NCBI GenBank assembly: GCA_030248065.1
Contig: JASAMV010009212.1
Span: forward strand, 78,649-142,648
DNA from: Rhynchonema sp. JSB1_4
Lineage: Eukaryota; Nematoda; Chromadorea; Monhysterida; Xyalidae
DNA: 64,000 nt
Direction: 5' to 3'
Shown: piece after piece, positions 34,698 through 64,000 of the stretch
Layout of the letters: the number at the start of each line of letters is the position of its first letter
How positions within the stretch are numbered: position 1 is the first letter of the stretch
Translations under genes and position numbers: made by a program
The notes under the pieces: generated by a model
The model's database searches: none
What the model was told of the DNA's origin: nothing
The model's input: the letters and a program-made list of their open reading frames with translations, nothing else

Positions 34698-35548
34698 ATG
34701 TCAGTTTGTTGGCTGACCGGGCTTGTTGCCGTGCTGGTCGTGGTGGTGGACGGTCAACCGAATTGCACGCTGCCGCAAGGCACCGACTTTTTCGACTCCA
34801 GTGCTACCGTAATCATCAGCGGCACATCGAACGCCGGCAAGATCGAACAAGGCGGCGTGTTGAATGCGACCTGTATGACCAACTATGCCTTTGCGCACGA
34901 TCCCCCAGCTGAATGGGTCACGTTGACGTGCACCAGCCATGAGACCTACGACATCACCGCTACTTGCAATTCAAGTAAACTTGCAATTCATAATTTTGAG
35001 AAATCTCTTACTATATCCACTATATCCGTATTTCATGTGTTTGCAGCCTGTGCCTTCACTCTGTCCGACCCAGTCGGAACCAATGTGACGGCAACGTCAC
35101 CCTCTGACCCCACGACCAGATACACTGGACGGTACATTCAGGGAACGGTAGTAACGTTTTCGTGTCTGAATGGACGCATACCAAATGGCACCGAACCAAT
35201 GATAAGGACTTGCACGGGAATGGACACTTGGGATACAGACGATCAACCAACTTGTTATGAAGGTGATGCCGAAGGTTGTTGGCATCAAGGGATGTCATTG
35301 ATAGGGTTATATGCATGATGATGTTTCAGTGTGCCTTGCGAGCAACATCTTGTTCGGAGCCAACACGAATAGCACAACAGCAACATACACGTTCGAGTCA
35401 TGGGAGACGGGCAAGATCCATGATGGCGGCGATGTGACATACAGCTGCAGCGATACTTATTTTTTGACATCTAATTTGACTAGCGTAGTACAAGGGCAAA
35501 ACTGTCTGGTAAACATGTCTTGGGATGGCGGAGAAGATTGTGTGCAAG
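34698..35548 (+). CDS. Adhesion GPCR: signal peptide and first CCP triplet (a1-b1-c1)
   Basis: Exon 34698-34974 starts MSVCWLTGLVAVLVVVVDGQ, a signal peptide, followed by CCP domain a1 (NCTLPQGTDFF ... NYAFAHDPPAEW ... ATCN). Exon 35047-35262 is b1 (CAFTLSDPV ... RYIQGTVVTFSC ... TCTGMDTWDTDDQPTC). Exon 35330-35548 is c1 (CLASNILFGAN ... GGDVTYSC ... NCLVNMSWDGGEDC). Each has four cysteines and a tryptophan before the last one. Domain a1 is more diverged from its copies than b1 and c1 are. Confidence 0.85.
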
Positions 35549-44500: not shown

Positions 44501-47500
44501 CTTGTGGGCATGCCGATGTCCATCGATGAGTGTCACGCGCATTTGATCTGACTTGCCCACATTCGAGGACCACTTTACTGATCCACGTAGATGGGCAGAT
44601 ACATTGAATTGTCCAACGCGTCTTTGCTTGTTCGCTTCGATCCGTTTTCGCACACGGGCGGTGCACCAGGACATCGTCAATGCGAATGAACCAGATGACC
44701 ATGTGACCTCAAAAACATCTACTAGCCTTTCTGTCCCATATCCACTTATGCGATTCTAATATTTCAGCGTGTCGTTCGCTGGACGGCGAGGGCAATGACG
44801 TCATCTACAACGACACCGGCCGAAACGACGGTCGTCGGTTCGTGGGCTCATCGGCCAACATCACGTGTCGCGACACCTACATCCCGCTGGTGAATGACTC
44901 CGAGTCCTTGGTCACCTGTTTGGGCAACGACCAATGGAGTGACAATGCACCATTGGACTGCTATCATAGTTAGTGCCCGCCTGTGGACACTGCAGGCTTT
45001 CGCAGACTACGGTGAACGTTGGTCGGTCTCGTAATTTTGGTTTGACCAGATTTTTGATTGGGTGTGTATAGTCGGGGGTTTTGAGTAGCAAACATTCGAT
45101 CTATACGTTAAAAGTTGTTCCTCGACTACAAATTAGCTGCCGTTCCACAGATATTCGAAACACTTAAACAACGTTAAAAACCTGGCCAAATCCACCAGAC
45201 CGACGTTCAGCGCAGGTCAATGACATTTATCTGTTTTCTAATTTGTTCAACCAAACTCCCTGTCTAAACCCGACTAACTGCCCGCAGCGTGCGAGCCGCA
45301 GTCCGACAACAACATCGACGTGAACAAGACCGTGACCGAACTCCTGGCCTCGAACGGGCTGGTGCCTGTCGGATCAAGGGCAGTGCACGAATGTTTGGAC
45401 AAATACGTGCACGACAGCATGCCGTTGATGGTGAATCACACTGTGAATTGCACTGCGAATGCAACCTGGTCGGAGACGGTCAATTGTATACCGAGTGAGT
45501 TCATGCAGTCTGTACTTTCTTTGTTGTCATGCATGATCGGGCCAGGCTATATCATTTCGGTCACTGTAAAGAACATGATCGATGGGACACTAGTGTCAGA
45601 TATTGGTGACCAAAGAAAGTGCGTGTTCTATAAATCAGCCACTCATTACAATTCTTGCATCCATCTGGTGAAACATCATTCAGCTTGCCCGAAATTCACC
45701 GATCCAAGCAATCAAACAACAATCAATATCACTCACCATTCCGACCCGGCGCACAATGGTCGATACATTCGAAGCACTGTTGTGACCATTGAGTGTCTGC
45801 CTGGCTACATCATGGACCCAACGGCGGTTGCCGTCAAAGAGTGCATTGATACGGACACCTGGAACGATACCACTGTGCCGGAATGCTATAAATGTTAGTT
45901 GACAATGTGTCCTGTAACGTTTCACAGTCCTGTATCACACGCAGGGTTGGAAAAAAAAATTTTTTTTAAACAAGTTTTTTTTTAAAAAAAAATTTTTTTT
46001 TACAAAAAAAAATTTTTTTTTAAAAAGTCTGAGATTCGGGGAAATTTTACCAAATTTGCCTAAAAAACGCGCAAAATCGCGAAAAAATGCAACTTTAATT
46101 GGCAAGTCACTTTTGTGACTTGGTTTGCATCACTTATCAAGGGTGTTTACGTCATTTCGGTGCGATCCAACAGTCTGTGCTTGATATGGACCGCTGATTG
46201 CTGCTCTGTGGTATCGGACACAACACTTTGTGGCCGAATAAGCAAGATTCACTCATAAACCACACAGAATTGAGAATATAAGCTGCAGAAATACTTGTCG
46301 GGTAGCTGAATCAGTCGTATATGACCGACCTGATGGGGTATGACATCGAAAAACCATGTAGGCACATGCATACTGTGTCCCATGTATTACGGGAAGGTAT
46401 AATAACATCATTTGGGGTATCTTAGGTACCAAATACATGCTCCAAAGGTGATTTTGTGAAGAAAATTTTTCGACCCTTGAGAAAAAATGACAAAAAATAA
46501 CCCCCAAAAAGGCCATTTTTGGACGTTTTAGAACATTTTGTTCCCCCGAAAATTTTTTAAAAAACCTTTTTTTAAAAAAAAAAATTTTTTTTTCAAAAAA
46601 AAAAAATTTTTTTTTGCCCAACCCTGATCACACGGCCCCCTCCAATTTCCAGCGTGCACCCCCTACCCGCTATCGATCGGCCAAGAGATTGTGTATGACC
46701 AGGCACCACGGGTTGAGACCGGTTCCTACTTGATCAACACAGTGGGTAACATTAGTTGCATGGATGGCTACGTTTCAACCACTCCCGGCTCGAATGACAC
46801 AGTGCAATGTGTGGAGATTGACACTTGGACGGGCAGCGAACTGGGATGCATTGCTGGTTAGTTTCCTTCCTTCTGACGGTCTTTTATGAACGAACCTTTC
46901 AATCAGAATATGCGCTTTCAGTTTGTCCCACCGATGACCCGTGGCCGGCCAGCATTGACGGCACCACAGCATACCAGGACTGTAGTCTTGGTCAACTGAG
47001 TCGACACTGTGATAATGGTAAGAGAAGTTGTTATTTTTTTATAAATTTGACCAGTTGTGTTTCGACTCCCTGATTTTTCAAGGCACTTGGCTGCCGGTGG
47101 ACGCATCGAAATGTTATGCGTTCGTCACCAAGCCATGTCCGTTGGGTGAGACGTGTTTGGATGGATCCACATGCACGTTGAGTGGTGGAGTGAAGGTACA
47201 TGCAGTGTTATACATTGCTATAATATCTATGCCATGTGTTGTGGCATATAATTGTAACCAAAATGTGCACACTCCAGGTGTGCCTGTGTGCGCCCGGCTA
47301 CCACGCAGTGAGGGACAACACAATTGGTCGTGACGTATGTCGTGTGATTGAACGTCGCGCGCATCAGTCATGTGCAAATGGTAAAACTGCAACTTTGTTG
47401 TTTTGCGCATCTTTTGTGAAAATAACAATTTAAAAAACAGCGGCGACCCTTTACTTTTGTGCATCCAGGCGAGTTGTGCATTGGCGGTTCCACATGCAAG

Positions 47501-50500
47501 TACACCAATCACACGGGTGTCTGGGCGCACTTGTGCGTTTGTGCCGATGGACTGATTGAATATCAAGATCTCATCACTGAGCAGCCACTTTGTGGAATTG
47601 GTATAAATTTCATCTTTATTCTTCTTTTTCCAACTTTCCCTTCCGTCCATTTTTTGGCCTCAACTCAAGCAAACTGTCAGGGCTGCAAACAAACGTTTCG
47701 CAAATGTGATCTTCATATTCCTAAGCCCAATTGCTTGCCTGAACCCAAGCCTAAACAGAACGCGATAAAACTCCATCAAGTCCCATGAGTAAATGCACAA
47801 ACAATTTACCTCCAATTGCGCAGAGGCCGATTGTGGTCCGAAGGAGGAGCTGGCAGTGCTGGATGATGGCACCAAACGTTGTCTACACGTCACACAGCAG
47901 GGCGGGGACTTCTTGACCGCGCTCAGAGCGTGCAACAACACCGGCAACCCCGTGGTCACGGTCAAATCGCAACAGGAATGGGACTACTTTCACACACTGA
48001 GGTGCGATTCATACGCTCCAACTCTTGATTTCTCAAAATGTTATTTTTGTCTTATAACGAGAATTTCGCAGAATGAAAGCACGACAAAATGATCCCACAT
48101 TGGATGCTATCTGGATCGGTCTGCGCTACGTACCACAAACATTGAACTACCTGTACGCTGATGGGACACCATACACCAACAAATCGTGGCTGCCGACCAA
48201 TTTCGAACCGGTATACACGAACATTACGGATATAATTTTTTAAATATGTGTTTATTGTGATCGAAGTAGGCTTTATTTACCATGTCGCACGAGTATTCAC
48301 ACCACAACCGATAGTAACGTACATAGTATAGTCCGTCCACCAGCTCATGGCACTTTGTGTTGCTGCTGGCTGGTTTGTTCCCTTCCTCCACGTTCTAATG
48401 AAAGAGAAATTGCGTGTGAGCGATTTTGCAAAAAAAACTGAAAAAATAATAATACGTGTCGAAAACGATTGAATTCGATCAAATTTAAAATTAAATTAAA
48501 TTAAAATCTATAAAACACGTCGATTTCATAAAAATAGCAATTTAGGAGCAAAAATAATTTTTTTCGGAAACTCAATTTCTCTTTCATTAGAATGTGGCGG
48601 AAGGGAACAAACCAGCCAGCAGCAACACAAAGTGCCATGAGCTGGTGGACGGACTATACTGTATGTTTAACCTTGTATAAGGAGGACACAATCCACACAC
48701 CAACCCATCCCTTCCCACCGTAACCTATCCGTCATGTGCTCAGTAACCCACCCCTTACGTGCCGTAATCCATTCAGACGTTCCACGAGAACTATCCGATG
48801 CCGATGAATCCACTTGACCAACGGTATTGCATTGCGAGTACATTCGGCAATCAGTACAACTGGAAGTTTGAAGGTTGTGCTGAGAACGCGCGTATGGCTG
48901 TCTGCTATGGACCACCACGTGAGGGTTCTTGTGTAATTTCTGTTTTTTTGTGAATCAGTATTTCGAAGTTACAATAATGCCCCAAAAACCATATTGAAAC
49001 GTCACAGGTTTCTGCATGGCCACCGGCGAATGGCCAAAAACACGAGAGAACGAGTACCATCAGATCATCTGTGGCGCGGGACTAGGATACTCAAAGTTCC
49101 GACTTTGTCAGCAGGGTGGACTCTGGGCGGATCCGATGCACTACTGTTTCGCGTGGGTTAGTCAGTTTTCAACGCCCAAGGTACTAACACAGCATGTATC
49201 AACATAAGGAATGTCAGAAAAAACAAAAGAAAGAGAAAAGCTTTTAAAAAATCGTTCTCGCCGTCAGGTTGGCGATTCGTGTTTGTATGGCGAATTGTGT
49301 CAACTGGATTCGGTCTGCGTCGGCAACGCAGCTGGCAAAACATGTGAATGTCCACTGGGCAAGACTGAGTACTTGGCCGATCCCACAACCAATAGGACGG
49401 GATGCAAGGTTTGATCAGGGCTTACTTCGCAGAAAATCAGCCATTTGGTTAAATGAAAAGTTGCTGAAAACACACAAATGAAGGTTGTATTACGTGGGTT
49501 TTGATGAACGTTTAGGTGACCGAATCGTACGTGGGCGAGACGTGTGTGAACGGTGAAACGTGCATGGGACGGTCAACTTGTGATTCGTCGTTGGTTGGTA
49601 CTTTTTTTGTTAGTCTTTACATTTTTGACGCTCGAAAGGCGGCAGTTGGAGAATCAAAATTTTACCGCGTGCGCTCCCCGCATATACACCGAATGTGGAA
49701 CATTTTCCCGTTTTTGAGAAAGTAGAGCAACTGTATAAGTTGAACATCGTGGGTGAAATGTTTCGTCTTAGAAATGAGGTCCTGGCAAACTTGAACTGCT
49801 TTACTACCAACATTCGAACAACCAGAATTCGAAAGAAAAACAAAACTATAACTAATGAACAAAAAAACATCAGCACAACAGCAAAGCATTACAGTCTAGG
49901 TACCTTAAAGTGACTTGTTTTGGCATTTTCAATCACTAAAAGGGCTGTCCCCTCATAGAGTGTTGGACAATACATATCGGGGATCTACGGCCAGTCACTA
50001 CTGTATGTATATGCGGAGGGCATCACAAAAAAAGCGTAAAGTAAAAATCGCATGAAGAAGACACACTGTATTTAGACTGTGTTGTATTGTATCGGTACTG
50101 TATTCACCGATGTGCAGGTATGCACGTGTCCATGCACACTGACACCCGCCAACGACACGGCGAATCCAGGCAAACAGATCTGTCTGCCGGACATGTCGTA
50201 TGTCGGGGATTACTGTATCGATGGACAAGAGTGTCAGGGTGGCTCGGAATGTCTGGATGGTGTCAGATGTCAATGTCCCGACAATACGCTGCCACAAGTG
50301 GACACCAATGGCAATATGGGTTGTGTCGCGCGACCGCCGTGTGAGAAAGATGGTACGCTTGGAATCCGATTCTAAAAGTTACATACCGTACTTTGATCCA
50401 TCAAAAATTAATTAGAAAGAGGGCGATAAGAAAGATACACACATACATACATTGAGCCGTACCAACCTTGCGGGCAAACCCTGGGACCACTGCGAGAACG

Positions 50501-53500
50501 ACTGGGCACAGGCACATTTGAAACAACTTTTTACGCCGGTTGAAATTATGCTCAAACTCTATCGCAAAATACGGGTCAATGATGGTTTTAGTCGTATGTA
50601 GTCCAATCGTAGTAGTGGTAGTTTCTGCCCTCGAAGTTGATAGTGCGGGCCAATATCATTCATACGAAATGTGTGATTGCCAGACAATATCATGGCAACT
50701 TTTGTGAATGATCAAGTACAGTTGCAACAAGCGTCGCGCTGCTTGCTTGACACAATCAATCCGATCACCAGTTGCTTGTTGATTATCATATTTGATACCA
50801 GTGACACGATCCCTCGATCCCCCCACAGGTATCTGGCTCAAAACGCACGCCAACCGCACGCGTGTGCTCAACTGTGAGGCCACACTAGTTACCGGACGTC
50901 GATTCCGGTTCTGCAATGCGGACGGCACCTGGGGTCCGATTGACGCGAGCACATGTCAAGCGTATGTGAATCACTCGTGTGCAAATGGCCAAATCTGTGT
51001 TGGCAACAGTGAATGCGATGCAACTAGCAAACTGTGTGCGTGTCCCAGTGATAGGAGTGTGTTGACGGATCCCAATGTTGGAGCTCAGGTATGTATACCG
51101 TACCATTGTGTTTCCGATGGTTAATTTACGTCACATGTGCCCGTGGTATCAAATTTGATTTGCTCAGTCATTTGGTCAAGGCTGGTCCGACCCAATCACC
51201 AACTTTGATGCGCTGCATTGTGATCTTAGAATTGTCGTTGATTGAAGAAGTATTCTATCCACTTAAAAATGGGTACTGATAAAGCATGCATGGGGTACCG
51301 ATGGGCAGGATAACAAGTATGACATTGCTTGCCGATCGCATTCTAATGGGTGTTCCACACGACCGATTTCAAAAATGCAAATGAATCCCCCACTCAGGTG
51401 TGTGTGCCCAACCACATGCAAGTTGGTGACTCGTGCGCCTTGGATGCGACCTCGTGTGGTTGGGGCTCCTACTGTGACGCAACGGACAATCTGTGCAAGT
51501 GCAATCTCAACACGCATATTGTCGCGCATGACTTGGGCATCGATTTCTGCTCGGAAAGTCTGTGTTGTACATTTATTTTTAATATTTCAGGCCCTAATAT
51601 AGCCCGTGCATAAACATGCGGTAATACCTGAACCGGGCATTACCAAGCTTTGTGTGTCGCATAGTGGCTGACGTTTCTGTACGAAGCTTCTCGGCCCAGA
51701 TAATGAGCTACACATATGAACTCTTTGCTTATCGCGCGTCTATGCTATAACACACAGCAATTTACCACACCTTTCTCATCAATATCATAAACCATTCTTA
51801 ATTCCTTTATCCAGAACCGGCCTGTCCTGGCACCGAGCTTCTGGTCGGTAACGTACAGTACCGGGTGCAATTCTAGGCTGAAAGTTGAAGTCGCGTGCAC
51901 GCGCGTGCACGCGCGTGCGAAACAGTGCAAAGTATAGGCAAAAGTCGAAGTAACTTCGCGTGCCCGCGCGTGCACGCACGTGCACGCGCGCGCGCGCGAG
52001 GTTTCGCGCGCGCGCCGGCGCGCCCCCCCTCTTTCCTCTACAGGGAGCGCGCGCGCGCGCGCGCCCCGCGCCCCCCCCACCCCCCGCGACTTCAACTTCC
52101 CTAGAACACGTAACTGTATGTCACACACTACGCGCAGCAGCCAACTGGGCGGACACGTATGCCGCTGGATGTTTGGCACATGTTAGCACCAGTGACCATT
52201 GGGAAGAATTCGTCATGTCACGGTGAGTGAGTTGGGAAGTGTTCGGGGTCTGATCATACCCTTATGATCGGTATCCAGGTATCGGATCTACTGTACGTAA
52301 CTTAATCACGTCACGTGACGTTTTTGAATTGACAGTAACAAGTGTCATGTAGATGCCAGTACAATTTTGATCAGTGTGAAAAAATGTTCCCAGACATCTA
52401 TGATAATCCGCTTACACTGGTGGAATCAGTAAATCTCAAAAATGTCCTTTTCCTAAAAAAACAGTCACGTATCCAAGGTGCCAGCTGGATTAGTTAGGAT
52501 CCGACATCAAGTTTGATACCGGGTTTTTAAAGCATTGAATACCAGCATATGTTAAGTTTGTACCAATATGTCCCATCACAGACTGGAACTCTCGCCCGAG
52601 ACTACGAACGCGGACTCCATGTGGATGAGCGCTGGTCACAATTCGGGAACTTTCTACTTCCACAATGCATCCACTACGTTTGACCCGAACCACGCATCAA
52701 ATGATTGGATCCCATGGCTTGGCGGCAGCCCGGACACCACAGCTGGGGATTGTGTGGTGACAAAGAAGGCCGATGGGTACAAATGGAGATTTGTTGATTG
52801 TGCCGAAACACATGCTGGTCGGTTGGGAAAGGAAAGGGAATGTAAAATGTTTCAAACGTCAGGTCAACGCGCCGAGCTTTTTGTGCCTGTCAATGGTTCT
52901 GTTGAGGATACTCACGGCCAAGTCGGCTTTTGCACTAACTATGATTTGTGCACCGCTCAGATTGGATGCACAAATGTACCAAAGTCATTCACACCAAGCA
53001 AGCTCCCTGTAAAAAAATAGAATTCACCACCTGCCTAACCCCAATTTCAGGCGCGTGCACCCCGGGCAGTGGCGCACGCACCCAGTGTCCCAACAGCGGT
53101 GTCTGGCCGCGTACGAGTGAGAATGCCACCCATGGCACCCTTGTCGTGTCCGGCTGTATGCAACGCGACTGCAAACAGGACACACAGGGCTGCTGGGGAC
53201 TGGTGATCGACTCCGGTTGTGCTCTGTACGTCAATGAAACTTGTGAAAAAGCGGGTGCCTGTAAGGGCAATAGCTTCTGTCAACCACCGGAGGAGGATCA
53301 TTCTACAAGGCAGTGTCGATGCTCGGCTGGCTGGAAACAAAATCTCAGGTTCGTTGCATTATTGCAGATTTCTACAGTTTCTAAATCCACCGATGTTAAA
53401 AATATAGAAAAACTGAGCGGAACAGATTTTATCGCCAAAGTTCTGATAGCAGAATTGACGAAAATGCCGATTGCCGACCACGTCAATATAAAGTGGACAG

Positions 53501-56500
53501 ACTGTACTCCATTTTGCCTTGCCAATTCAGGACGGTAGACAGCAAGTACGATTGTCGCGACCCCGAGCCGCACATCAACCAATCCTGTCAGTTGGGCCAG
53601 TCCTGTCGCGGCGGGTCAGTGTGCAACGGTACCCACTGTGTGTGTCCCGTTGGCAAATCGCCAATTTTCGAACCCGACACCTCCAAATGGGTGTGTCTGG
53701 CCAACCAGGCCTACGTGACCGACAACTGTGAGAATGGGGAGGCCTGTCAGGGCGGCTCCATCTGTATCGGCAACTATCAATGTCGATGTCCGAAAGGCAA
53801 GCGGCCCATCCGGGACTCGTCAGTGTCTGAAGAGCGCTACATCTGCACCCCAGATGACTCATACGAAGGGGAGAGTTGTGCGTCAGAGCAGATCTGTCGC
53901 GGTGGCTCGGTGTGTGTGGCAGCAAGTGGCGACTGTGAATGTCCGGCTGGACAGGAACCACAAATGGATGCCTGTTTGAACAAGGCGCTTTGTGTCACCG
54001 CCAGCTCGGTGCCGGGAGAGACCTGTGCAAATGGGGAGATATGTTTGGGCGGTAGCTCGTGTGTCGCAGGTTGGTGGCTGCCTTGATGATTCACGAATGC
54101 ATGTAAAATGTGTTCTCGTGAGCTCGTTTTGCAGTATTTTCTTCTGTTGATTTCAAAACCGAAGATTGTGGTTTTGATTAGCGTAAAACGCATTTTAGCT
54201 TTCCTGACTGGTTTGAAACATTCAAGCTAAACCCAAAACCAATTTTTAAACCCGAACTGTCAGTGAATTTCCAAAGATACCTGTACCAAAGAACACTGCG
54301 ACCTGTACCCAAGCTCGCCGTCGATGACCGACATCCTAATGGCGTTGATGGTTGTGAAGTGCACATGACATGTGAACAGCTGATGTTAACAACATCATGT
54401 TATCACACAGGCACATGTGAGTGCGAAGCGGATGAGACGAATCTGAACGATGTTTGCGTTGGTGAGCTGGCGATGGTATGGGACGCGTGCACCGCGTACA
54501 ATCCGTGCAGTCCATTGACTGATTCGACGTGTGTTGACGGCCGGTGCATCTGTGAACGACCGCGGTACTACAGCAACGACAGTGGATTCTGCAATATGAA
54601 TGTGTCATTGCAGCAGGTACTTATACTATACCGAGCGACACGCTCTGGATGAACACTTTTGGAGTACAAGCCCTGATGACGGCCTGGTGCACCGCTCGTA
54701 TGGAAAACCGCATTTTTTGTGCAAGCTGAATCATGCTGCTCATTTTCTTGGCGGCCTCTTTCCACTTGTGCTCACAGACTGGCGGTGCTCCTGGTCATCG
54801 TCAGTACTGGTCTTGTGTCAACCCACCAACTGCCTAACCATCTGATGTTTCACATCAGGACATGTCCTTTGCACTATACAACGAGCCGTGTAGCACGCGC
54901 AAGATGTGCGAACCAATGGAAATGACATTGTGCATTGAGGACAAATGTCAATGTCATCCAACAAGGGAATTCAGGGAAAGTATGTGCATGCTGCCTGGTG
55001 AGTGCACCAATCCCGATCACCAGTACGACTGGGACCAAAGACGATGCCGGTGGGTCTAGGACAGCTTTGCTAGATATCGCACTTGGGAATCCGCCTTGGG
55101 CAAGTGAATTCTTTGGATTTTGCCACGTGCCATAACATATCACCAGTGATCAGCGTAAAAGTATACCTATGGTTCCCGAGACACAGAATGAACGTCTTTT
55201 AGGATGGTCGTCAGTATTCATATTCGTTCATGCAACATGTCGCTTAAGCAAGGCTGGCCCGATCCGATCACCGAGTTTAATGTGCCAGCCGGTCAGTATT
55301 CACACACTGATTTGTACACACAGATATCCGGTGGCCGGCGAAGCGTGTGAGGACATGTGCGAACCGCAGTACATAATGTGCAAAGACAAACCAGACGGGA
55401 AAACGTGTGGCATACCGTTCTATATGGAAACGTGTCGCGACAAATGTGTGAATGACACCAGCATGCAGTGTGATCGGGACACTGTAAGTTGGAGGCTGTG
55501 TTATCGTAACCCAGAAACCACAGTAACCTACATCTTTATCCATTTCAGAAAATTTGTTTGTGCCAACCCGGCTACGTTTTCGACGCTGCCGCCAATAATT
55601 GCATCGAAAAGGTCGGCGTGCCGGGTGACCGGTGCTCAATAGTGACCAAAACGTGCGTAAATGGCGCAACTTGTGATCGCGCCACCGGCTTCCCGTACTA
55701 CTGTAGATGCGCTGCTGGATATGCACCCAGAGTGAGTTTGAAAGTACAGAAGCTGCCCTTTCTTCGGTGACGGCGGGAAACGGCATTTTCTGTCGCCACT
55801 ATATCAAGAACATTCAGTGAGTGTCGAAAAAGACGAATGACAGTTCGCCTACCGAAGAATAGATCGCCCACGCTTAGCATCAAACTGATATCCATGCACA
55901 ACCGCGGCCGAGATCTGGCGTCACAAAAAGGTTTCCATGTTTATTGGATCAGCCACTGCGTATTTATATGCAGGTCATGCCTGCGTACACAAGAAAAAAT
56001 ACTGGTGAAGCATTATGATGCACGCTGCATCATGAGGCGTCAAAAAGGTTCGGTTGGTTTTTTTTTGCTTCAAAAAGCTTGCATCATAAAAAGAATAAAA
56101 AGAGAATATCGAATAAAAAGAGATCGGAACCAGGCATGGGAACAATACCGATATTTTTTACCCAAGCCAATACCCAATACCTAGTGTCCAGTGGGTCAGT
56201 AATTTATATTTTTGGAAAAAAACCGTTTTTTTCAAGCAAATGGCCAACCTGTACTCAAGGAATTCAGGAAACACCTACCTACTTTCAGGCAGTTGTTTGC
56301 TGGTTTTACAGCCTAACAAGTGCCGCGTGTGTATCGTAGGCTTGAAAACGCCTTCTTTTCACCTGCTTTAGCTTTGAAATCTATCTGGCTCCGAAAAAAA
56401 CCGTTTTTACCATATAAACACCTTTTTTGGGACTTCTCCAGAAGTTTCCGAAATAAGGTGTTAAGAAGAACAACACACGTCCTGTGGAGCCCATCGAGCG

Positions 56501-59500: not shown

Positions 59501-62500
59501 ATGGGAAATTTCTCAAGTATCCGAAATAAGGTATTAAGAAGAACAACACACGTCCTGTGGAGCACAGCAGTCCAGCGGGCGACATATAAACATCTTTTAT
59601 GGGAAATTTCGCAGCAATATATGAACAGAAGTTTTTTGAATCACGCGTTTTGAAGAACTACACATGTACTTTGGAGCACAACAGCCCAGCGGGCGGCTTA
59701 TAAACACCTTTTATGGGAAATTTCTCAAGTTTCCGAAATAAGGTGTTTTGAAGAACTACACATGTACTTTGGAAGACAACAGCTCAGTGGGCGACTTATA
59801 AACACATTTTGTGGGAAATTTCTCAAGTTTCCGAAATAAGGTGTTAAGAAGAACAACACACGTCCTATGGAGCACAACAGCCCAACGGGCGGCTTATAAA
59901 CACCTTTTATGGGAAATTTCTCAAGTTTCCGAAATAAGGTGTTAAGAAGAACAACACACGTCCTGTGGAGCCCATCGAGCGGCTTTATAAACATCTTTTA
60001 TGGGAAATTTCTCAAGTTTCCGAAATAAGGTGTGAAGAACTACACATGTACGTTGGAGCACCACAGCTCAGCGGGCGGCTTATAAACACCTTTTATGGGA
60101 AGTTTCTCAAGTTTCCGAAATAAGGTGTTAAGAAGAAGAACACACGTCCTATGGAGCACAACAGCCCAGCGGGCGGCTTATAAACACCTTTTATGTGAAA
60201 TTTCTCAAGTTTCCGAAATAAGGTGTTAAGAAGAACAACACACGTCCTGTGGAGCCCATCGAAGGCGTTATAAACATCTTTTATGGGAAATTTCTCAAGT
60301 TTCCGAAATAAGGTGTTTTGAAGAACTACACATGTACTTTGGAGCACCACAGCTCAGCGGGCGGCTTATAAACACCTTTTATGGGAAATTTCTCAAGTTT
60401 CCGAAATAAGGTGTTAAGAAGAACAACACAGTCCTATGGAGCACAACAGCCCAACGGGCGGCTTATAAACACCTTTTATGGGAAATTTCTGAAGCTTCCG
60501 AAATAAGGTGTTAAGAAGAACAACACACGTCCTGTGGAGCCCATCGAGCGGCTTTATAAACACCTTTTATGGGAAATTTCTCAAGTTTCCGAAATAAGGT
60601 GTTTTGAAGACCTACACATGTACTTTGGAGCACAACAGCTCAGTGGGCGGCTTATAAACACCTTTTATGGGAAATTTCTCAAGTTTCCGAATTAAGGTGT
60701 TAAGAAGAACAACACACGTCCGATGGAGCACAACAGCCCAACGGGCGGCTTATAAACACCTTTTATGGAAAATTTCTCAGGTTTCCGAAATAAGGTGTTA
60801 AGAAGAACAACACACGTCCTGTTGAGCCCATCGAGCGGCTTTATAAACACCTTTTATGGGAAAAACTACTGTACCAGGATGGAGCGTCAACACAATCGAC
60901 ATTCCACGAAACATTACGCTGTAAACTGAAAAGCGGTGACACCACAAACACAGAAACTAAGCGGTCAACAGGCTGATGCAAGCCATTTTCACCGCCTGAA
61001 TTTCCGGATTGACTTCATTGTGCATCAAGATCTGTCTGACGGACCTTTTTAACCTTTTTGACGCACGTTGACGCGTCTTGATGCATCATGATGTTTTTCT
61101 CTTACACTCCTGCATCATGATACATCATTATGCGTCAAAATGCTTCACCAGTATTTTTTTCTTGTGAGGAGCGGCATCCCTTAGAATTGCGAGGCGCATA
61201 CAGTGTTGCGTGTACGGAGGTCACCAACTTTAACATACATACCGTCTAATCATATTAGTGCTGAGTCATTCCTAAATTCAGATCAACGACACGGATTACG
61301 GTATTCCGTATTGTCTGCCAAGATTGGTTCCCCTTGATGGATCATGCGCGACGGGGATTGAGATCTGCATGTACGATTCTTCGTGTGACCCGGTGACCAA
61401 AACATGTCAATGTATGGAGGGCACAGAAAGGGAGCCAAACAACACTTGCACGCGTATGACCTGTCCCGCACTCGGTGAGTGACGATTTTGGCGCTTTATT
61501 TTCTCATCCAAACAGTATCGCTACATGTATAGGCAACTATCCTGAAACATTTGTCAACGACGACGCGACGCTGCCGTGTGATGTTTCAACCGATATCGGC
61601 ATCAAGAAACGTCACTGTGAAGGAAAAGACAGTTGGGGCGAGGAGCACAACATGTGTGTGGGCACAAGCACACAACAATTGGAGGCCTACCTGAAAGGTA
61701 TACCCTAGGATTATAATGTTTCACGACTCCAAGTCATCGAGCAATATATACGTAGCGAGTGCCCTTGATAATTCAGGTCGATTCCTGTCCTACCCAACGG
61801 TGGAGGCGTGCGATTATGTGCTCAAAGCGATCAACTATCGAACGGCCGAAATCCGTGAAACATCAGACGCAAAGGAAGTGATTGAGCTAATGGACTATGC
61901 GATGGACAAATGCCCCGTGCCACAGATATTCACTGAGGAGCAGGAGAAAAAGAAGGAACAAGTCATCCAGGTTAAACGGGCATTGCCATATGCTGATGAT
62001 GACCTGGCACCCGCTGCTGTTGATTATTGCGTGTGCTTTTGTTGTCACGCACAAGTCACCAAATGCTGCAAGAATGTGAAAAGGGGGAAGAGAATGATTG
62101 AAGGAACAAACGGATCCTAGTGGCCGTTGCCTTTGAAAAATTATGATGGCTAGCAATTTTCCACACCGCTGCTCTGAACCGCATATTAGATACATATACA
62201 TACGTATTGCTAAAACATCAAGGTCCCGATCCAATCATTAAGTGAGTCCCTGATGTTTCATTTCAAGGAAGCCCTGCGCGTGATGGACTACATTCTGAAC
62301 GATCGCAACGCCGAACTGGTCGCCAACAGTGCACAAGTGTCCACTCTGTACGCGTTCATGGTGGAAAAATTCAGGTGCGCAAAATGTGAAAAAATTTACA
62401 AAAGAATTAATAAAATGAAAATTCGCAAAGTTTTTCCAGCATTTCAATGAGTCGCGACTATCTGCGACGTTACAATGCGTTGCTGGCTAGTGGTGTGCCT

Positions 62501-64000
62501 GAAAGTCAGGCCGAGGTGAAACGCATCCTCACATACGACACTGTGGATGGGAGGCAGAAAATTCGTACGTGCGCATGCATGGTCTAGATTCAATATCCGA
62601 ACGGTGCGATGTTTCATTTTTTGCAGAAACCGGCAACTTTGTAATTCGACCGGGACAAAAGAAAGCGGCTGGCATGACCACGGACCGCGGGGCTTGCCTC
62701 ATGACCAAACTTGACACGCCAGGTATGTATAATTGTATTTATGCCAAAAATAATTTCTGCAACGTGCAGTAATCGACTGATTTTCCTTTTTTCCATCAAA
62801 CCGTTTGTCAGATCTGCTAAGTCGCAAGGACAATTTCGGCATGGCCTGTACGATCATTGACTTGCCGATCAAACGCTTCGTCCCGCCAAAACCGCCCAAA
62901 GAGGGTTCGAGATACGAACTCGCTCCAACTATTATTAGTGTGACGGTAGGCGCTTTTTTGATTGATTGTAATCGAGACGCGGCCACTTTTATGGCACCAG
63001 GCTGCATACCATTTGTATTGTAGAGCACACAACTTGACCGTTTTGGACAGTGCTTCGACGCACAACGCATGTCTGCATCATGAAAACTTAAAATCACATG
63101 AAAGATTCTCAGAATTTTACTCTATTTCTCCCTGTTTTCCAAACATGGAGCCACTTGCAGGTACAAGGGGGCGATTTGACAGCCGAAGCCAAAAAGGACT
63201 TAATGGTTACGCTGAAATTCATGCTGCCACAAGATAAGAAGATCCCGGCAGAGAATCTGCAGTGCGGATGGCTTCAACGCAATCCCGCCACCGAGCGCGC
63301 GTTAGTTCAATTACAGTTCTGGGTGCAATTCTAGGCGGAAAGTTGAAGTCGCGTGCACGCGCGCGCGCCCCCCTCGAAAAAAAGGAAACCAGCAAAACCG
63401 ACACCCGCCCCCCCCCCCAACCCTCCCCCTCCTCCCCCTTTCCCCCCCCGCCCCCCCCCTGTATACATACAGTATCTTGGCTGGAAAATTATGCAGATTC
63501 CAGAAAAGAAAACAATTGATTTCAGTCGCTTCACAAAAGACGGATGCACGCTGAGTGTGGCTGACGAAAAATCAGCGCTGTGCACGTGCACGCACACGAC
63601 CAACTACGCGTTGTTGATGCAGATTGACCCACCCGTGGTTGGTGATTGATTGATTAGGTCATTCATTCGATCCATCGATTGATCAATTGATTGTTGATCA
63701 AAGATTCAATAATATTCGAGCGATATATTCAATGATTGATGAGCTGCAGATCGAGGACGAACACCGCGAGATTCTGCGTTGGCTCACCCATTTCTGTTTG
63801 GTCATCTCCATCTGTTGTCTGCTGGTCGCACTGTGCGTGCTGTTGTACATCAGGAAAATGCAGACCAAACGAATTGTGATCCTGCGAAATCTGTGCATAT
63901 GTCTGTTGCTCGGACAGCTGTTCTTCCTCATCGGACTGCATCTCAGCGGATCTTATGTGCGTCGCTTTTTTGTAGTAACTTTTTGTCCGCTGTGATAATA
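34698..64000 (+). CDS. Giant adhesion G-protein-coupled receptor with CCP, HormR-like, EB, C-type lectin, GAIN/GPS and 7TM (3' end outside window)
   Basis: One same-strand gene with signal peptide, 29 CCP domains, HormR-like segments, EB modules, two C-type lectin domains, GAIN, GPS and the first two membrane helices. I traced about 61 coding exons; every junction keeps frame and the total within the window is 3,871 codons. All CCP exons are class 1-1. I find no second signal peptide or terminal stop between the CCP array and the GPCR part, which supports one gene, although a hidden boundary near 46.9 kb cannot be excluded. The GPS plus TM1-TM2 places it in the adhesion family (class B2). Expected location is the plasma membrane with a very long ectodomain, likely heavily N-glycosylated. 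I know no named orthologue with this architecture. The coding region continues past the right edge. Confidence 0.85.
35657..38449 (+). CDS. Adhesion GPCR: nine CCP domains in three near-identical triplets
   Basis: Exons a2 35657-35869, b2 35946-36161, c2 36229-36447; a3 36556-36768, b3 36845-37060, c3 37128-37346; a4 37657-37869, b4 37948-38163, c4 38231-38449. Copies are almost identical in exons and introns. Start-to-start spacing of c1, c2 and c3 is exactly 899 bp; c3 to c4 is 1,103 bp because of an inserted MITE and small indels. c4 matches the others up to its middle (GKIHDGG), then switches to a different 3' half (SVTTQTQTCHANMTWSGGQQ). That marks a duplication or conversion boundary. 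Confidence 0.9.
37376..37605. mobile_element. MITE with TA target duplication inside a duplicated CCP intron
   Basis: Starts AAGGTCGGTTTATACTCTGAC and ends with the inverted form GTCAGAAGTATAAATCGACCT, flanked by TA on both sides. The sister introns at about 35575 and 36474 read TCTAAGACAT uninterrupted, so the empty site is known. The element is 230 bp, with no coding frame of interest. Confidence 0.9.
38509..46856 (+). CDS. Adhesion GPCR: seventeen further diverged CCP domains
   Basis: Exons 38509-38718, 38787-38996, 39103-39330, 39399-39632, 39782-39997, 40323-40523, 40751-40957, 41331-41546, 41610-41819, 42236-42448, a domain split over 42749-42841 and 42969-43091, then 43363-43578, 44174-44374, 44768-44968, 45288-45494, 45684-45893, 46653-46856. 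All are phase 1 to 1 and 201-234 bp except the split one. Sequence types follow the a-b-c order of the first triplets: a-type ends in ETW/ESYD before the last cysteine, b-type has GRYI.GTVVT.SC, and c-type has a GGYAEYAC-like core. Two additional domains (39399-39632, 39782-39997) interrupt the order. N-glycosylation sequons are frequent. Confidence 0.85.
40058..40204. mobile_element. MITE-like element with about 33-bp inverted repeats
   Basis: The left arm contains TGGAGTTATACTTGTCCATT and the right arm is its reverse complement with a few changes (GAACAAGTATAACTCCAG). The terminus AAGGTGGAGTTATACT resembles that of the 37376 element. The interior (AACAACTTCTACGCTGGTCG) has a relative at about 50523-50575. 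Confidence 0.8.
43699..43826. repeat. Inverted repeat / small foldback in CCP intron
   Basis: TTGAAAATGCAAAGAAAGGG on the left pairs with TTTCTCTTTCTTTGCATTTT on the right, with a spacer of about 70 bp. Likely a small MITE or remnant. No target duplication was resolved. Confidence 0.65.
45934..46634. mobile_element. hAT-like non-autonomous transposon with 8-bp target duplication
   Basis: The element spans 45942-46626 (685 bp). It begins CAGGGTTGG and ends CCAACCCTG, both followed inward by long A/T runs. The flanks are the identical octamer ATCACACG (45934-45941 and 46627-46634). An 8-bp duplication with short CAGGG-type termini is the hAT signature. There is no transposase frame, so it must move in trans. 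It lies in the intron before the last CCP exon. Confidence 0.9.
46922..47600 (+). CDS. Adhesion GPCR: first HormR-like segment and EB modules
   Basis: Exons 46922-47017, 47083-47195, 47278-47380, 47469-47600. The first two encode TDDPWPASIDGTTAYQDC, QLSRHCDNGTWLPVDASKC: the C...R.C..GTW...C pattern of hormone-receptor (HRM/HormR) domains that sit in adhesion GPCR ectodomains. The rest are EB-type modules (CPLGETCLDGSTC, VCLCAPGYHAVRDN, CANGELCIGGSTC, LCVCADGLIEYQD). EB modules are Cys-rich units common in nematode extracellular proteins. Confidence 0.75.
47824..48918 (+). CDS. Adhesion GPCR: C-type lectin domain 1
   Basis: Exons 47824-48001, 48072-48210, 48777-48918. Landmarks are DCGPKEELAVLDDGTKRC, NPVVTVKSQQEWDYFHTL, LDAIWIGLRYVPQTLNYLYA, WLPTNFEP, RYCIASTFGNQYNWKFEGC and MAVCYGPP. 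The WIGL motif and four core cysteines fit the C-type lectin fold. A canonical EPN or QPD sugar/calcium triad is not obvious (FEP is at the place), so calcium-dependent sugar binding is uncertain. The second intron contains a 336-bp foldback element. Confidence 0.83.
48325..48660. mobile_element. Foldback element with about 87-bp inverted repeats in lectin-1 intron
   Basis: Left arm 48325-48412 and right arm 48575-48660 are near-perfect reverse complements: TATAGTCCGTCCACCAGCTC inward to CTAATGAAAGAGAAATT. The centre is AT-rich. The outer ends, TA-CATAGTATAG and CTATACTG-TA, hint at a TA target. Confidence 0.88.
49008..51557 (+). CDS. Adhesion GPCR: HormR-like segments and EB modules between the lectins
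   Basis: Exons 49008-49156, 49268-49408, 49516-49593, 50118-50352, 50829-51088, 51398-51557. Two HormR-like patterns appear: YSKFRLCQQGGLWADPMHYC and GRRFRFCNADGTWGPIDAST. EB units include GDSCLYGELCQLDSVC, CECPLGKTEYLADP, GDYCIDGQECQGGSEC, CQCPDNTLPQVDTNG, CANGQICVGNSEC and CALDATSCGWGSYC. All phases agree. Introns of 0.3-0.5 kb contain short dispersed repeats. Confidence 0.8.
51815..52817 (+). CDS. Adhesion GPCR: C-type lectin domain 2, exon interrupted by a transposon
   Basis: Exon halves 51815-51855 and 52119-52222 flank a 261-bp element (51856-52116); exon 52582-52817 follows. Read across the element minus one TA, the frame is continuous: ACPGTELLVGNV then CHTLRAAANWADTYAAGC, the expected lectin spacing. 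The next exon has DSMWMSAGHNSGTFYF, SNDWIPWLGGSPDTTAGDC and YKWRFVDCAETHAG. Read through as it stands, the element brings an in-frame stop (CAATTCTAG). A GT/AG pair in the exon (GT at 51848, AG at 52137) would remove the element plus nine codons, including one cysteine, in frame. Confidence 0.78.
51856..52116. mobile_element. Tc1/mariner-type MITE inserted in a lectin exon
   Basis: Flanked by TA on both sides, beginning CAGTACCGGGTGCAATTCTA and ending with its diverged inverse (GACTTCAACTTCCCTAGAAC ... AACTG). CAGT...ACTG ends with TA duplication fit Tc1/mariner. The inside is an extreme alternating CGCGCG/GTGCAC tract and poly-C. A second, shorter copy is at 63314. Confidence 0.85.
53051..55731 (+). 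CDS. Adhesion GPCR: EB-module stalk
   Basis: Exons 53051-53348, 53531-54069, 54411-54616, 54859-55049, 55324-55483, 55549-55731. The first begins ACTPGSGARTQCPNSGVWPR, resembling the post-lectin segment after lectin 1. Then EB modules follow in series: CQLGQSCRGGSVCNGTHCVC, CENGEACQGGSICIGNYQC, CASEQICRGGSVC, CANGEICLGGSSC, then GTCECEADETNLNDVC, CICERPRYY, KCQCHPTREF, ICLCQPGYVFD and CRCAAGYAPR. The recurring unit is C..G..C.GGS.C..G.C.CP.G. Exon 54859-55049 uses a GTGGGT donor, chosen for phase over the stronger GTGAGT at 55002. Confidence 0.82.
55989..61165. mobile_element. Possible large transposon: inverted repeats bracketing a satellite array
   Basis: ACAAGAAAAAATACTGGTGA at 55989 recurs inverted at 61131-61165, followed inward on both sides by GCATT.TGA.GCA and copies of GCATCATGA / GCGTCAAAAAGGTT. 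The enclosed 5.2 kb is mostly a tandem array. No transposase frame and no clear target duplication were found, so a transposon is only one explanation. Confidence 0.55.
56412..60862. repeat. Satellite array of about 91-97-bp monomers with higher-order structure
   Basis: Roughly 45-50 head-to-tail monomers, each starting AACACCTTTTATGGGAAATT and running through CCGAAATAAGGTGTT. At least three second-half types occur: ...GTCCTGTGGAGCCCATCGAG; ...GTCCTATGGAGCACAACAGC; ...TTTGAAGAACTACACATGTA. A marker variant (TATGAACAGAAGTTTTTTGA) appears about every 1.3-1.65 kb, showing higher-order units. The array sits in one intron of the receptor gene. Long frames in it are artefacts of the repeat. Confidence 0.95.
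61282..61697 (+). CDS. Adhesion GPCR: last EB module and juxta-GAIN HormR domain
   Basis: Exon 61282-61474 (YCLPRLVPLDGSCATG, CDPVTKTCQCMEG) resumes the EB series after a 5.5-kb satellite-filled intron, in phase 0. Exon 61533-61697 encodes YPETFVNDDATLPCDVS and KKRHCEGKDSWGEEHNMC. That is a C..R.C...W...C HormR-type pattern lying directly before GAIN, as in latrophilin-type receptors. Its acceptor is TGTATAG, slightly unusual. Confidence 0.75.
61777..63300 (+). CDS. Adhesion GPCR: GAIN domain
   Basis: Exons 61777-61970, 62268-62374, 62440-62564, 62627-62722, 62812-62945, 63161-63300. Helical GAIN-A-like segments (CDYVLKAINYRTAEIRETSD, EALRVMDYILNDRNAEL, AQVSTLYAFMVEKF) are followed by beta-rich GAIN-B (NFVIRPGQKKAAG, NFGMACTIIDLPIKRF, APTIISV, KKDLMVTLKFMLPQDKK) leading to CGWLQRNPATERA of the GPS. 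All phases match (1-0, 0-2, 2-1, 1-1, 1-0, 0-2). GAIN domains hold the tethered agonist and mediate autoproteolysis in active family members. Confidence 0.85.
63314..63461. mobile_element. Second, truncated copy of the CAGT/GC-rich element in the GPS intron
   Basis: Begins TA-CAGTTCTGGGTGCAATTC and shares the following GAAAGTTGAAGTCGCGTGCA with 51856, then runs into alternating GC and poly-C. The right inverted end is missing; it stops near CCCTG-TA. It is entirely within the intron between the two GPS exons. Confidence 0.75.
63526..63637 (+). CDS. Adhesion GPCR: GPS motif and tethered-agonist segment
   Basis: Encodes RFTKDGCTLSVADEKSALCT, then CTHTTNYALLMQIDPPV. Joined to CGWLQ from the preceding exon it forms C.W...GC...C.C.H.T.YALLM. 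The two residues usually required, His at -2 and Thr at +1, are present. The residue at the cleavage position, normally Leu in HL|T, is Thr (HT|T). The second conserved tryptophan is replaced by Phe (RFTKDGC). Cleavage competence is therefore uncertain. Confidence 0.88.
63750..63956 (+). CDS. Adhesion GPCR: transmembrane helices 1 and 2 (7TM continues off window)
   Basis: Encodes EILRWLTHFCLVISICCLLV, ALCVLLYIRKMQTKR and ILRNLCICLLLGQLFFLIGL: TM1, first intracellular loop and TM2 of the class B2 bundle. The RNLC...LL..Q..FLIG pattern is typical of adhesion receptors (NLC...L...LVFLIG). It ends at a TAT|GTGCGT donor; later helices lie beyond 64000. Confidence 0.85.

What the first reader, a model, noticed from the sequence alone, without database searches (positions are those of the whole stretch)
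34698..64000. Adhesion GPCR with 29 CCP domains, two C-type lectins and a long EB stalk
The exon model is frame-consistent through 3,871 codons from signal peptide to TM2. No adhesion GPCR that I can name combines a large CCP array, EB modules, paired C-type lectins and GAIN/GPS-7TM. It may be a lineage-specific pattern- or matrix-sensing receptor, with a tethered-agonist GPCR as output.
Basis: partly seen in the sequence, partly recalled or inferred. Interest (0 to 1): 0.92.

Follow-up and report, generated by a model that had tools for sequence, protein, structure and literature searches.

The report
Giant CCP-lectin-EB adhesion GPCR family
An unidentified animal carries a giant cell-surface receptor that joins 29 complement-type repeats, two lectin-like domains and many EB modules to an adhesion GPCR of the self-cleaving kind, and two sister genes in the same genome share much of the order of parts; limited searches did not find this combination elsewhere.

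Summary
A splice-aware model runs open from a signal peptide at 34,698 to TM2: 62 exons, 3,869 aa after two hand corrections. It encodes 29 CCP modules (four cysteines invariant in 29 of 29), HRM-like and EB modules, C-type lectin-like domain 1 (over the Pfam cut-off), domain 2 (by profile comparison only), a GPS with H-T-T triad, and TM1-TM2. The contig ends at the window's end, so TM3-TM7 are missing. Sister genes are colinear with it at 35-44% identity: C3830 across both doubtful introns, C3900 across the second. In C3830 the last CCP and first HRM-like module share one exon, which speaks against two genes; its hand-spliced 7TM is complete. Three-CCP units were duplicated recently (U2/U3 exons 98.9% identical). 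Three protein searches, limited to word-sharing candidates, returned only three EB proteins, all named as nematode. I read it as a tethered-agonist adhesion GPCR with a very long protein-binding ectodomain. Sugar or microbe sensing is not shown; by eye the lectin-like domains lack the usual sugar motifs. Species unknown.

The parts
34698..34760 (+). signal peptide, exon 1
   Evidence: hydrophobic MSVCWLTGLVAVLVVVVDGQP, first ATG of the open frame that starts at 34,677; no signal-peptide program run
34761..46856 (+). 29 CCP (Sushi) modules, one exon each except CCP23 (two exons, 42749-42841 and 42969-43091)
   Evidence: 4 Cys invariant in 29 of 29; Pfam Sushi 20 of 29 singly; first 30 introns of the automatic model all phase 1; CCP23 join
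34761..38449 (+). four tandem three-CCP units (U1 34761-35548, U2 35657-36447, U3 36556-37346, U4 37657-38449)
   Evidence: U2/U3 exons 98.9% and introns 96.9% identical; the other five pairs 83-94% in exons, 79-96% in introns
46922..47124 (+). HRM-like module 1 (exon 31 and start of exon 32)
   Evidence: pattern C..W..C..RxC..G.W..C, alignment of 14; fused to the last CCP in one exon of sister gene C3830
47125..47600 (+). EB modules before lectin 1
   Evidence: Pfam EB in the piece; 44% identity to C3830
47824..48924 (+). C-type lectin-like domain 1 (exons 35-37)
   Evidence: Lectin_C 27.7 bits, cut-off 22.6; profile of three sister copies matches PLA2R and LY75, E 6.6e-20 and 1.1e-19
49008..49156 (+). 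HRM-like module 2 (exon 38)
   Evidence: Pfam HRM 14.4 bits, below cut-off 26.2
49268..50352 (+). EB modules between the lectin-like domains, first group (start of exon 41 uncertain)
   Evidence: Pfam EB in the piece
50802..51557 (+). HRM-like module 3 followed by EB modules (exons 42-43)
   Evidence: colinear with the C3830 open frame 8234-7197, 38% identity
51815..52817 (+). C-type lectin-like domain 2 (exons 44-46; exons 44-45 poorly determined)
   Evidence: hhalign to lectin 1 family, probability 96.5, E 1e-9; no Pfam match
53051..53229 (+). HRM-like module 4 (first part of exon 47)
   Evidence: alignment
53230..55731 (+). long EB stalk (exons 47-52)
   Evidence: Pfam EB, 7 stretches, 72.1 bits; 39-40% identity to C3830 and C3900
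55732..61281 (+). 5,550-base intron largely filled by a satellite between 56,413 and 60,863 (units of 91-98, 189 and 286 bases)
   Evidence: both sister genes align across it
61282..61474 (+). last EB-like module
   Evidence: aligned to C3830 and C3900 across the satellite intron; no Pfam EB match in that piece
61500..61697 (+). HRM-like module 5, just before GAIN (exon 54; its acceptor is uncertain)
   Evidence: no Pfam match for this copy; alignment
61777..63526 (+). GAIN-like region (several exon borders uncertain)
   Evidence: position and alignment with C3830 and C3900; Pfam names no GAIN
63527..63616 (+). GPS motif with H-T-T triad and TNYALLMQ tethered-agonist-like stretch
63750..64000 (+). 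TM1-TM2; the rest is lost at the contig end
   Evidence: 7tm_2 29.6 bits, profile 4-57; contig ends

Best explanation
A single gene for a giant adhesion GPCR. Order: signal peptide, 29 CCPs, HRM-like, EBs, C-type lectin-like domain 1, HRM-like, EBs, HRM-like, EBs, lectin-like domain 2, HRM-like, long EB array, HRM-like, GAIN/GPS, 7TM. Shown by sequence: the parts, their order, and its conservation in two sister genes as far as these were read. Inferred: GAIN self-cleaves at H-T/T; the N-terminal fragment stays bound and reaches far from the membrane; CCPs and lectin-like domains bind a protein or glycoprotein partner on another cell, in matrix or on a microbe; binding or pull frees the TNYALLMQ agonist and switches on G-protein signalling. 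The CCP array grows by duplication of multi-exon units, changing reach and binding sites. The confidence given is for the gene's identity; for the inferred mechanism alone I would say about 0.5.
For: Open model against shuffles; 29 of 29 CCP cysteine pattern; Sushi, EB, GPS and 7tm_2 over cut-offs; lectin 1 over cut-off; 11 of 11 sister-gene segments tested (hand-picked, some hand-spliced: 7 of C3830, 4 of C3900) align to the window protein at 35-44% identity and in the same order within each gene, two of them across the satellite intron; CCP and HRM-like module in one exon of C3830, and EB, HRM-like and lectin-like parts in long open frames; hand-spliced C3830 7TM complete, 7tm_2 profile 4-246 of 250, 44.8 bits; best PDB match of that part is adhesion GPCR L3, E 2.7e-14; H-x-T in 3 of 3 genes, the motif named for GAIN self-cleavage in PMC13062082 (passages including the abstract seen); force-resisting contact between CCPs and an adhesion GPCR known for CD55-CD97 (PMC8191316, abstract and start of introduction seen).
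Against: No transcript evidence. 7TM cut by the contig end. GAIN not named by Pfam. Lectin 2 weak on its own. HRM-like modules below the HRM cut-off of 26.2: one window copy 14.4, one C3830 copy 17.4, the window copy next to GAIN no match; their profile matches complement CCPs better than hormone receptors. The gene-finder was trained on the region. The same gene-finder, run on C3830, missed several GAIN/7TM exons, which I then set by eye. Several window exon borders (10, 24, 41, 44-45, 54, 56-60) are uncertain. H-x-S/T alone does not ensure cleavage (PMC13062082: BAI2 has it and is not cleaved). Ligand and signalling are untested.
Confidence: 0.85

Rival explanations
1. Two neighbouring genes: a secreted CCP protein (34.7-46.9 kb) and a separate EB/lectin adhesion GPCR (46.9-64 kb).
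Against: In C3830 the last CCP and the first HRM-like module are in one open exon; exon 30 joins exon 31 in phase across a 65-base intron, with no AATAAA/ATTAAA in 46,857-47,082 and no stop in the joined frame. C3900 was not read at this junction.
Confidence: 0.06
2. Microbial pattern receptor whose lectin-like domains bind sugars and whose CCPs bind microbes or complement-like opsonins.
For: CCP and lectin domains recur in immune recognition (established knowledge); recent CCP-unit duplications in the window and on C3830 fit a changing recognition surface.
Against: By eye neither window lectin-like domain nor its copies at the same two positions in C3830 and C3900 show the EPN/QPD plus WND motifs (motifs recalled; the separate N-terminal lectin of C3900 has a QPN). 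Changed codons between CCP units are not dominated by amino-acid change: over six unit pairs 3-17 silent and 4-20 changing codons (unequal-length exon pairs left out; no formal test). No expression data.
Confidence: 0.3
3. Cell-cell or matrix adhesion and force sensor, selectin- or latrophilin-like, without an immune role.
For: Very long modular ectodomain, self-cleavage triad and tethered-agonist-like stretch; a lectin followed by CCP in C3900 is a selectin-like order (order of selectins recalled).
Against: No partner known; CCP number seems to change by recent duplication, unusual for a fixed adhesion ruler (inference).
Confidence: 0.5
4. Assembly artefact that joins unrelated pieces through the satellite and inflates the CCP array.
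For: 5.5-kb satellite intron, near-identical CCP units, contig end inside the gene.
Against: Two other contigs show the same order across the satellite position; the joined frame is open throughout. The exact number of near-identical CCP units is not protected by this.
Confidence: 0.05

Closest known systems
Latrophilins and other adhesion GPCRs (ADGRL, ADGRD, ADGRE, ADGRF)
   Same: GPS triad, 7tm_2, HRM-like module before GAIN; best PDB matches include ADGRL3, ADGRE5, ADGRD1 and ADGRF1
   Different: None known to me has a 29-CCP array, EB stalk or paired lectin-like domains (recalled); subfamily not assigned, no tree made
CD97/ADGRE5 with its ligand CD55
   Same: An adhesion GPCR tied to CCP domains, force-resisting contact proposed (PMC8191316, abstract)
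   Different: There the CCPs are in the ligand; here they are in the receptor itself
Complement receptors 1 and 2
   Same: Long CCP arrays; CR1 and CR2 are the best PDB matches of the CCP profile; CR1 also has large repeated CCP blocks (recalled)
   Different: No EB, GPS or 7TM (recalled)
Selectins and Drosophila Furrowed
   Same: C-type lectin-like plus CCP ectodomain on a membrane protein (recalled); C3900 has lectin then CCP
   Different: Single-pass, no GPS or 7TM (recalled)
Nematode EB-module proteins
   Same: EB arrays; the three database matches, named Trichuris suis, Bursaphelenchus xylophilus and Onchocerca flexuosa
   Different: Precomputed Pfam domains list no GPS, 7tm_2, Sushi or Lectin_C in them

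Membership tests
Adhesion GPCR | GPS motif over the curated cut-off, with H-x-S/T triad | tested here: met
   23.8-25.5 bits against 22.5; HTT in the window and C3900, HMT in C3830
Adhesion GPCR | Class B type seven-transmembrane domain | tested here: inconclusive
   Window: TM1-TM2 only, 29.6 bits, then contig end. Sister gene C3830, hand-spliced: profile 4-246 of 250, 44.8 bits
Adhesion GPCR | GAIN domain before the GPS | tested here: inconclusive
   No Pfam GAIN at E<=10; significant PDB profile matches start at profile positions 243-283, i.e. at the GPS end, with one weaker from 212 (E 0.0017); length and position fit
Adhesion GPCR | Actual self-cleavage and tethered-agonist signalling | not testable with these tools
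   needs expression
CCP/Sushi module | Four conserved cysteines | tested here: met
   29 of 29
CCP/Sushi module | Pfam Sushi match of each module | tested here: inconclusive
   20 of 29 at E<=0.1 singly; multi-module pieces 74.2 and 64.7 bits over the cut-off of 20.7, CCP1-3 19.0 below it
EB module | Pfam EB over cut-off | tested here: met
   69.7 and 72.1 bits against 24.3
C-type lectin-like domain | Lectin_C profile match, domain 1 | tested here: met
   27.7 bits against 22.6 when scanned alone
C-type lectin-like domain | Lectin_C profile match, domain 2 | tested here: not met
   No match; sister copies 13.4 and 15.5 bits, below 22.6; homology to domain 1 by hhalign only
Calcium-dependent sugar-binding C-type lectin | EPN/QPD and WND motifs (recalled) | tested here: not met
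   Read by eye in the alignments, for the two window domains; no binding test
HRM (hormone receptor domain) | Pfam HRM over cut-off | tested here: not met
   Three of 14 copies scanned alone: window 14.4, C3830 17.4, window copy next to GAIN none (cut-off 26.2); the profile of all 14 matches complement proteins first
Selectin family | Lectin-EGF-CCP ectodomain on one transmembrane helix (recalled) | tested here: not met
   CCPs come first and the protein runs into GPS-TM1-TM2

The most novel reading that the evidence does not exclude
A family of variable recognition GPCRs: the CCP arrays are copy-number-variable, multi-exon cassettes that are being duplicated independently in sister genes (three-CCP units in the window, two-CCP units on C3830), so that one animal lineage evolved a fast-changing CCP/lectin recognition surface wired straight to a tethered-agonist GPCR.
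Probability: 0.22. Interest if true: 0.82.

Novelty: new variant of a known kind. Interest (0 to 1): 0.63.

Why it matters
Adhesion GPCRs are known for varied ectodomains, but I found no print or database record of one that joins a CR1-sized CCP array, lectin-like domains and an EB stalk to GPS-7TM (paper searches; protein searches; all limited). If transcripts confirm it, it is a test case for how very long ectodomains transmit force or binding to a tethered agonist, and for how CCP arrays, so far best known from complement, can gate a GPCR directly.

Tried and rejected
Two-gene reading: rejected mainly on the fused CCP/HRM exon of C3830. Structure prediction of one HRM-like/EB exon: mean pLDDT 57, too poor to compare, so no fold search was made. 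Species: a COX1 search of the own genome did not complete, so the species is unknown; a paper search by assembly size found nothing. NCBIfam (a library for bacterial and archaeal proteins): no match for the C3900 GAIN-TM2 piece. Rfam: nothing over threshold in the window. A profile of the HRM-like modules matches complement proteins (best E 3.3e-5) better than hormone receptors (CRFR1 E 0.18), and 2 of 29 CCPs match Pfam HRM, so I call these modules HRM-like only; a CCP-derived origin is possible. C3713 was read by eye as a Flamingo/CELSR-like gene; C5234 has Sushi and 7tm_2 hits but no GPS hit, and only 15,747-19,049 of it was read; both dropped as sister genes. C1448, C5345 and C4238 carry other GPS/7tm_2 genes; by eye no CCP array in the 20 kb read of each, and no Sushi match listed on them, which scored 150 of 304 candidates. 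C3830 23,996-32,923 holds a second CCP/HRM-like/EB copy; whether it belongs to the same gene is open, because 10,000-23,995 was not read.

Full report
What is there. The window is the end of contig C5650 (bases 78,649-142,648 of 142,648) of an unnamed 203.9-Mb assembly in 5,747 contigs, so the contig stops at window base 64,000. An own splice-aware dynamic programme, seeded with peptides that I picked, started at the ATG at 34,698 and retrained on its own output, gives 62 exons and 3,835 codons without a stop up to TM2. The same parameters score 803.6 on the real strand, 47 on the opposite strand, 133 and 24 on the two strands of 29 kb upstream, and 22-42 on 8 dinucleotide shuffles. Because parameters and seeds came from this region, I treat this as consistency and not as proof.

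Modules. The CCP part has 29 modules; the alignment of all 29 keeps four cysteines in 29 of 29. Singly, 20 of 29 match Pfam Sushi at E<=0.1 and 2 of 29 match HRM; CCP1-3 together stay just below the Sushi cut-off, while two longer pieces are far above it. The first 30 introns of the automatic model are all phase 1, the usual exon-shuffling class. The middle part has EB modules (14 stretches at E<=1 in two pieces), lectin-like domain 1 (27.7 bits, cut-off 22.6) and domain 2, which Pfam does not see and whose own profile finds nothing significant in the PDB, but which matches the domain-1 family by hhalign (probability 96.5, E 1e-9; three sequences on each side). A profile of domain 1 from three genes matches the lectin-like domains of PLA2R, LY75 and mannose receptors. 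The three scanned alone fall below the Pfam HRM cut-off or show no match, and the profile of 14 matches complement proteins better than hormone receptors, so their origin is open. GPS and 7tm_2 are over cut-off; only TM1-TM2 are present. GAIN is not named by Pfam.

Sister genes. Genome searches pointed to C3830 by GPS, Sushi and EB matches and to C3900 by Sushi, 7tm_2, EB and Lectin_C matches; C3830 was not listed for 7tm_2 or Lectin_C, nor C3900 for GPS, and those parts were found on reading the DNA. C3830 (minus strand, bases 9,999-1) has CCP, HRM-like, EB, lectin 1, HRM-like, EB, HRM-like, EB, lectin 2, HRM-like, EB array, HRM-like, GAIN/GPS and, after splicing by eye, a complete 7TM (7tm_2 profile 4-246 of 250). 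C3900 (9,501-16,500 and 25,401-26,300 read) has the same order from EB/lectin 1 down through GPS into the 7TM, and further upstream a lectin over cut-off (40.2 bits) followed by a CCP-like frame. I tested 11 hand-picked segments, 7 of C3830 and 4 of C3900: 11 of 11 align to the window protein, in the same order within each gene, at 35-44% identity; one segment of each gene aligns across the satellite intron, and one of C3830 across the CCP-to-HRM junction. In C3830 that junction lies within one exon, which disfavours a gene border near 46.9 kb; no AATAAA or ATTAAA lies in 46,857-47,082. C3900 was not read at that junction.

Recent change. Units U2 and U3 of three CCP exons are 98.9% identical in exons and 96.9% in introns; the six unit pairs range from 83 to 99% in exons and from 79 to 97% in introns. 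On C3830 (24.9-32.9 kb) a two-CCP unit of about 771 bases recurs, 82-96% identical between shifted copies in the main matches. Over six unit pairs 3-17 codons changed silently and 4-20 with amino-acid change, unequal-length exon pairs left out and without a formal test. Unit number may vary between individuals or be misassembled.

How it most likely works. Shown: order and conservation of parts, H-x-T triad in 3 of 3 genes, followed by TNYALLMQ, TNYALLVQ and TNYALMMQ. From the literature: H-x-S/T is the self-cleavage motif of GAIN and a following stretch is the tethered agonist, though the motif alone does not ensure cleavage (PMC13062082, passages including the abstract); CD97 binds the CCP protein CD55 in a geometry suggested to resist force (PMC8191316, abstract). 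Inferred: the long N-terminal fragment binds a partner far from the membrane, and binding or pull exposes the agonist. I put adhesion or matrix force sensing (0.5) ahead of microbial pattern sensing (0.3), because by eye the two lectin-like domains lack the usual calcium and sugar motifs (recalled).

Novelty. Protein searches used the EB-to-TM2 part (1,749 aa), the C3830 HRM-like/GAIN/7TM part and a shortened CCP-to-lectin part. They gave three EB proteins, named as Trichuris suis, Bursaphelenchus xylophilus and Onchocerca flexuosa (007 candidates scored), none (000 scored) and none (992 scored). These searches only see relatives of similar length that share exact 5-residue words. Paper searches listed nothing that I recognised as this architecture; I saw listings, and passages of PMC12716839, PMC6208332 and PMC13197933. 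A 2025 survey of choanoflagellate GPCRs does not mention sushi, CCP or lectin in its main text, and the held part of a 2026 review of adhesion GPCRs mentions neither sushi, CCP nor C-type lectin. So: a new architecture within a known receptor class.

Noticed in passing
window 56,413-60,863: Satellite of about 91-98-base units with 189- and 286-base periods inside the intron before the last EB-like module.
   Followed up: partly
window 45,951-46,026 and 46,553-46,615: A/T-rich short repeats of 18-22 bases in the intron before the last CCP.
   Followed up: no
window 7.9-29.2 kb, + strand: Collagen Gly-X-Y exons and an fn3-like exon, all below Pfam cut-offs (21.2, 16.1 and 17.5 bits; 3 of 10 upstream frames scanned gave a match at E<=0.01); possibly one multiplexin-like collagen gene.
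   Followed up: partly
window 51.9-52.1 kb and 63.3-63.5 kb: Two GC-rich stretches that read alike by eye (RARARA and PPPP), perhaps a dispersed repeat; the first makes the start of lectin-like domain 2 uncertain.
   Followed up: no
L029, L030, L031, L035, L040, L042 and L071 (G000:C3830:23,996-32,923): Second CCP array of recent two-CCP units followed by HRM-like and EB modules; separate gene or same gene not settled.
   Followed up: partly
L013-L014 (G000:C4238): Another GPS/7tm_2 gene whose upstream stretch reads C-type-lectin-like by eye; not tested by profile.
   Followed up: no
L016-L017 (G000:C3713): Flamingo/CELSR-like GPS gene by eye, followed downstream by lectin- and EGF-like frames.
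   Followed up: no
G000:C442:7,752-22,791: EB array that includes a 1,223-aa open frame.
   Followed up: no
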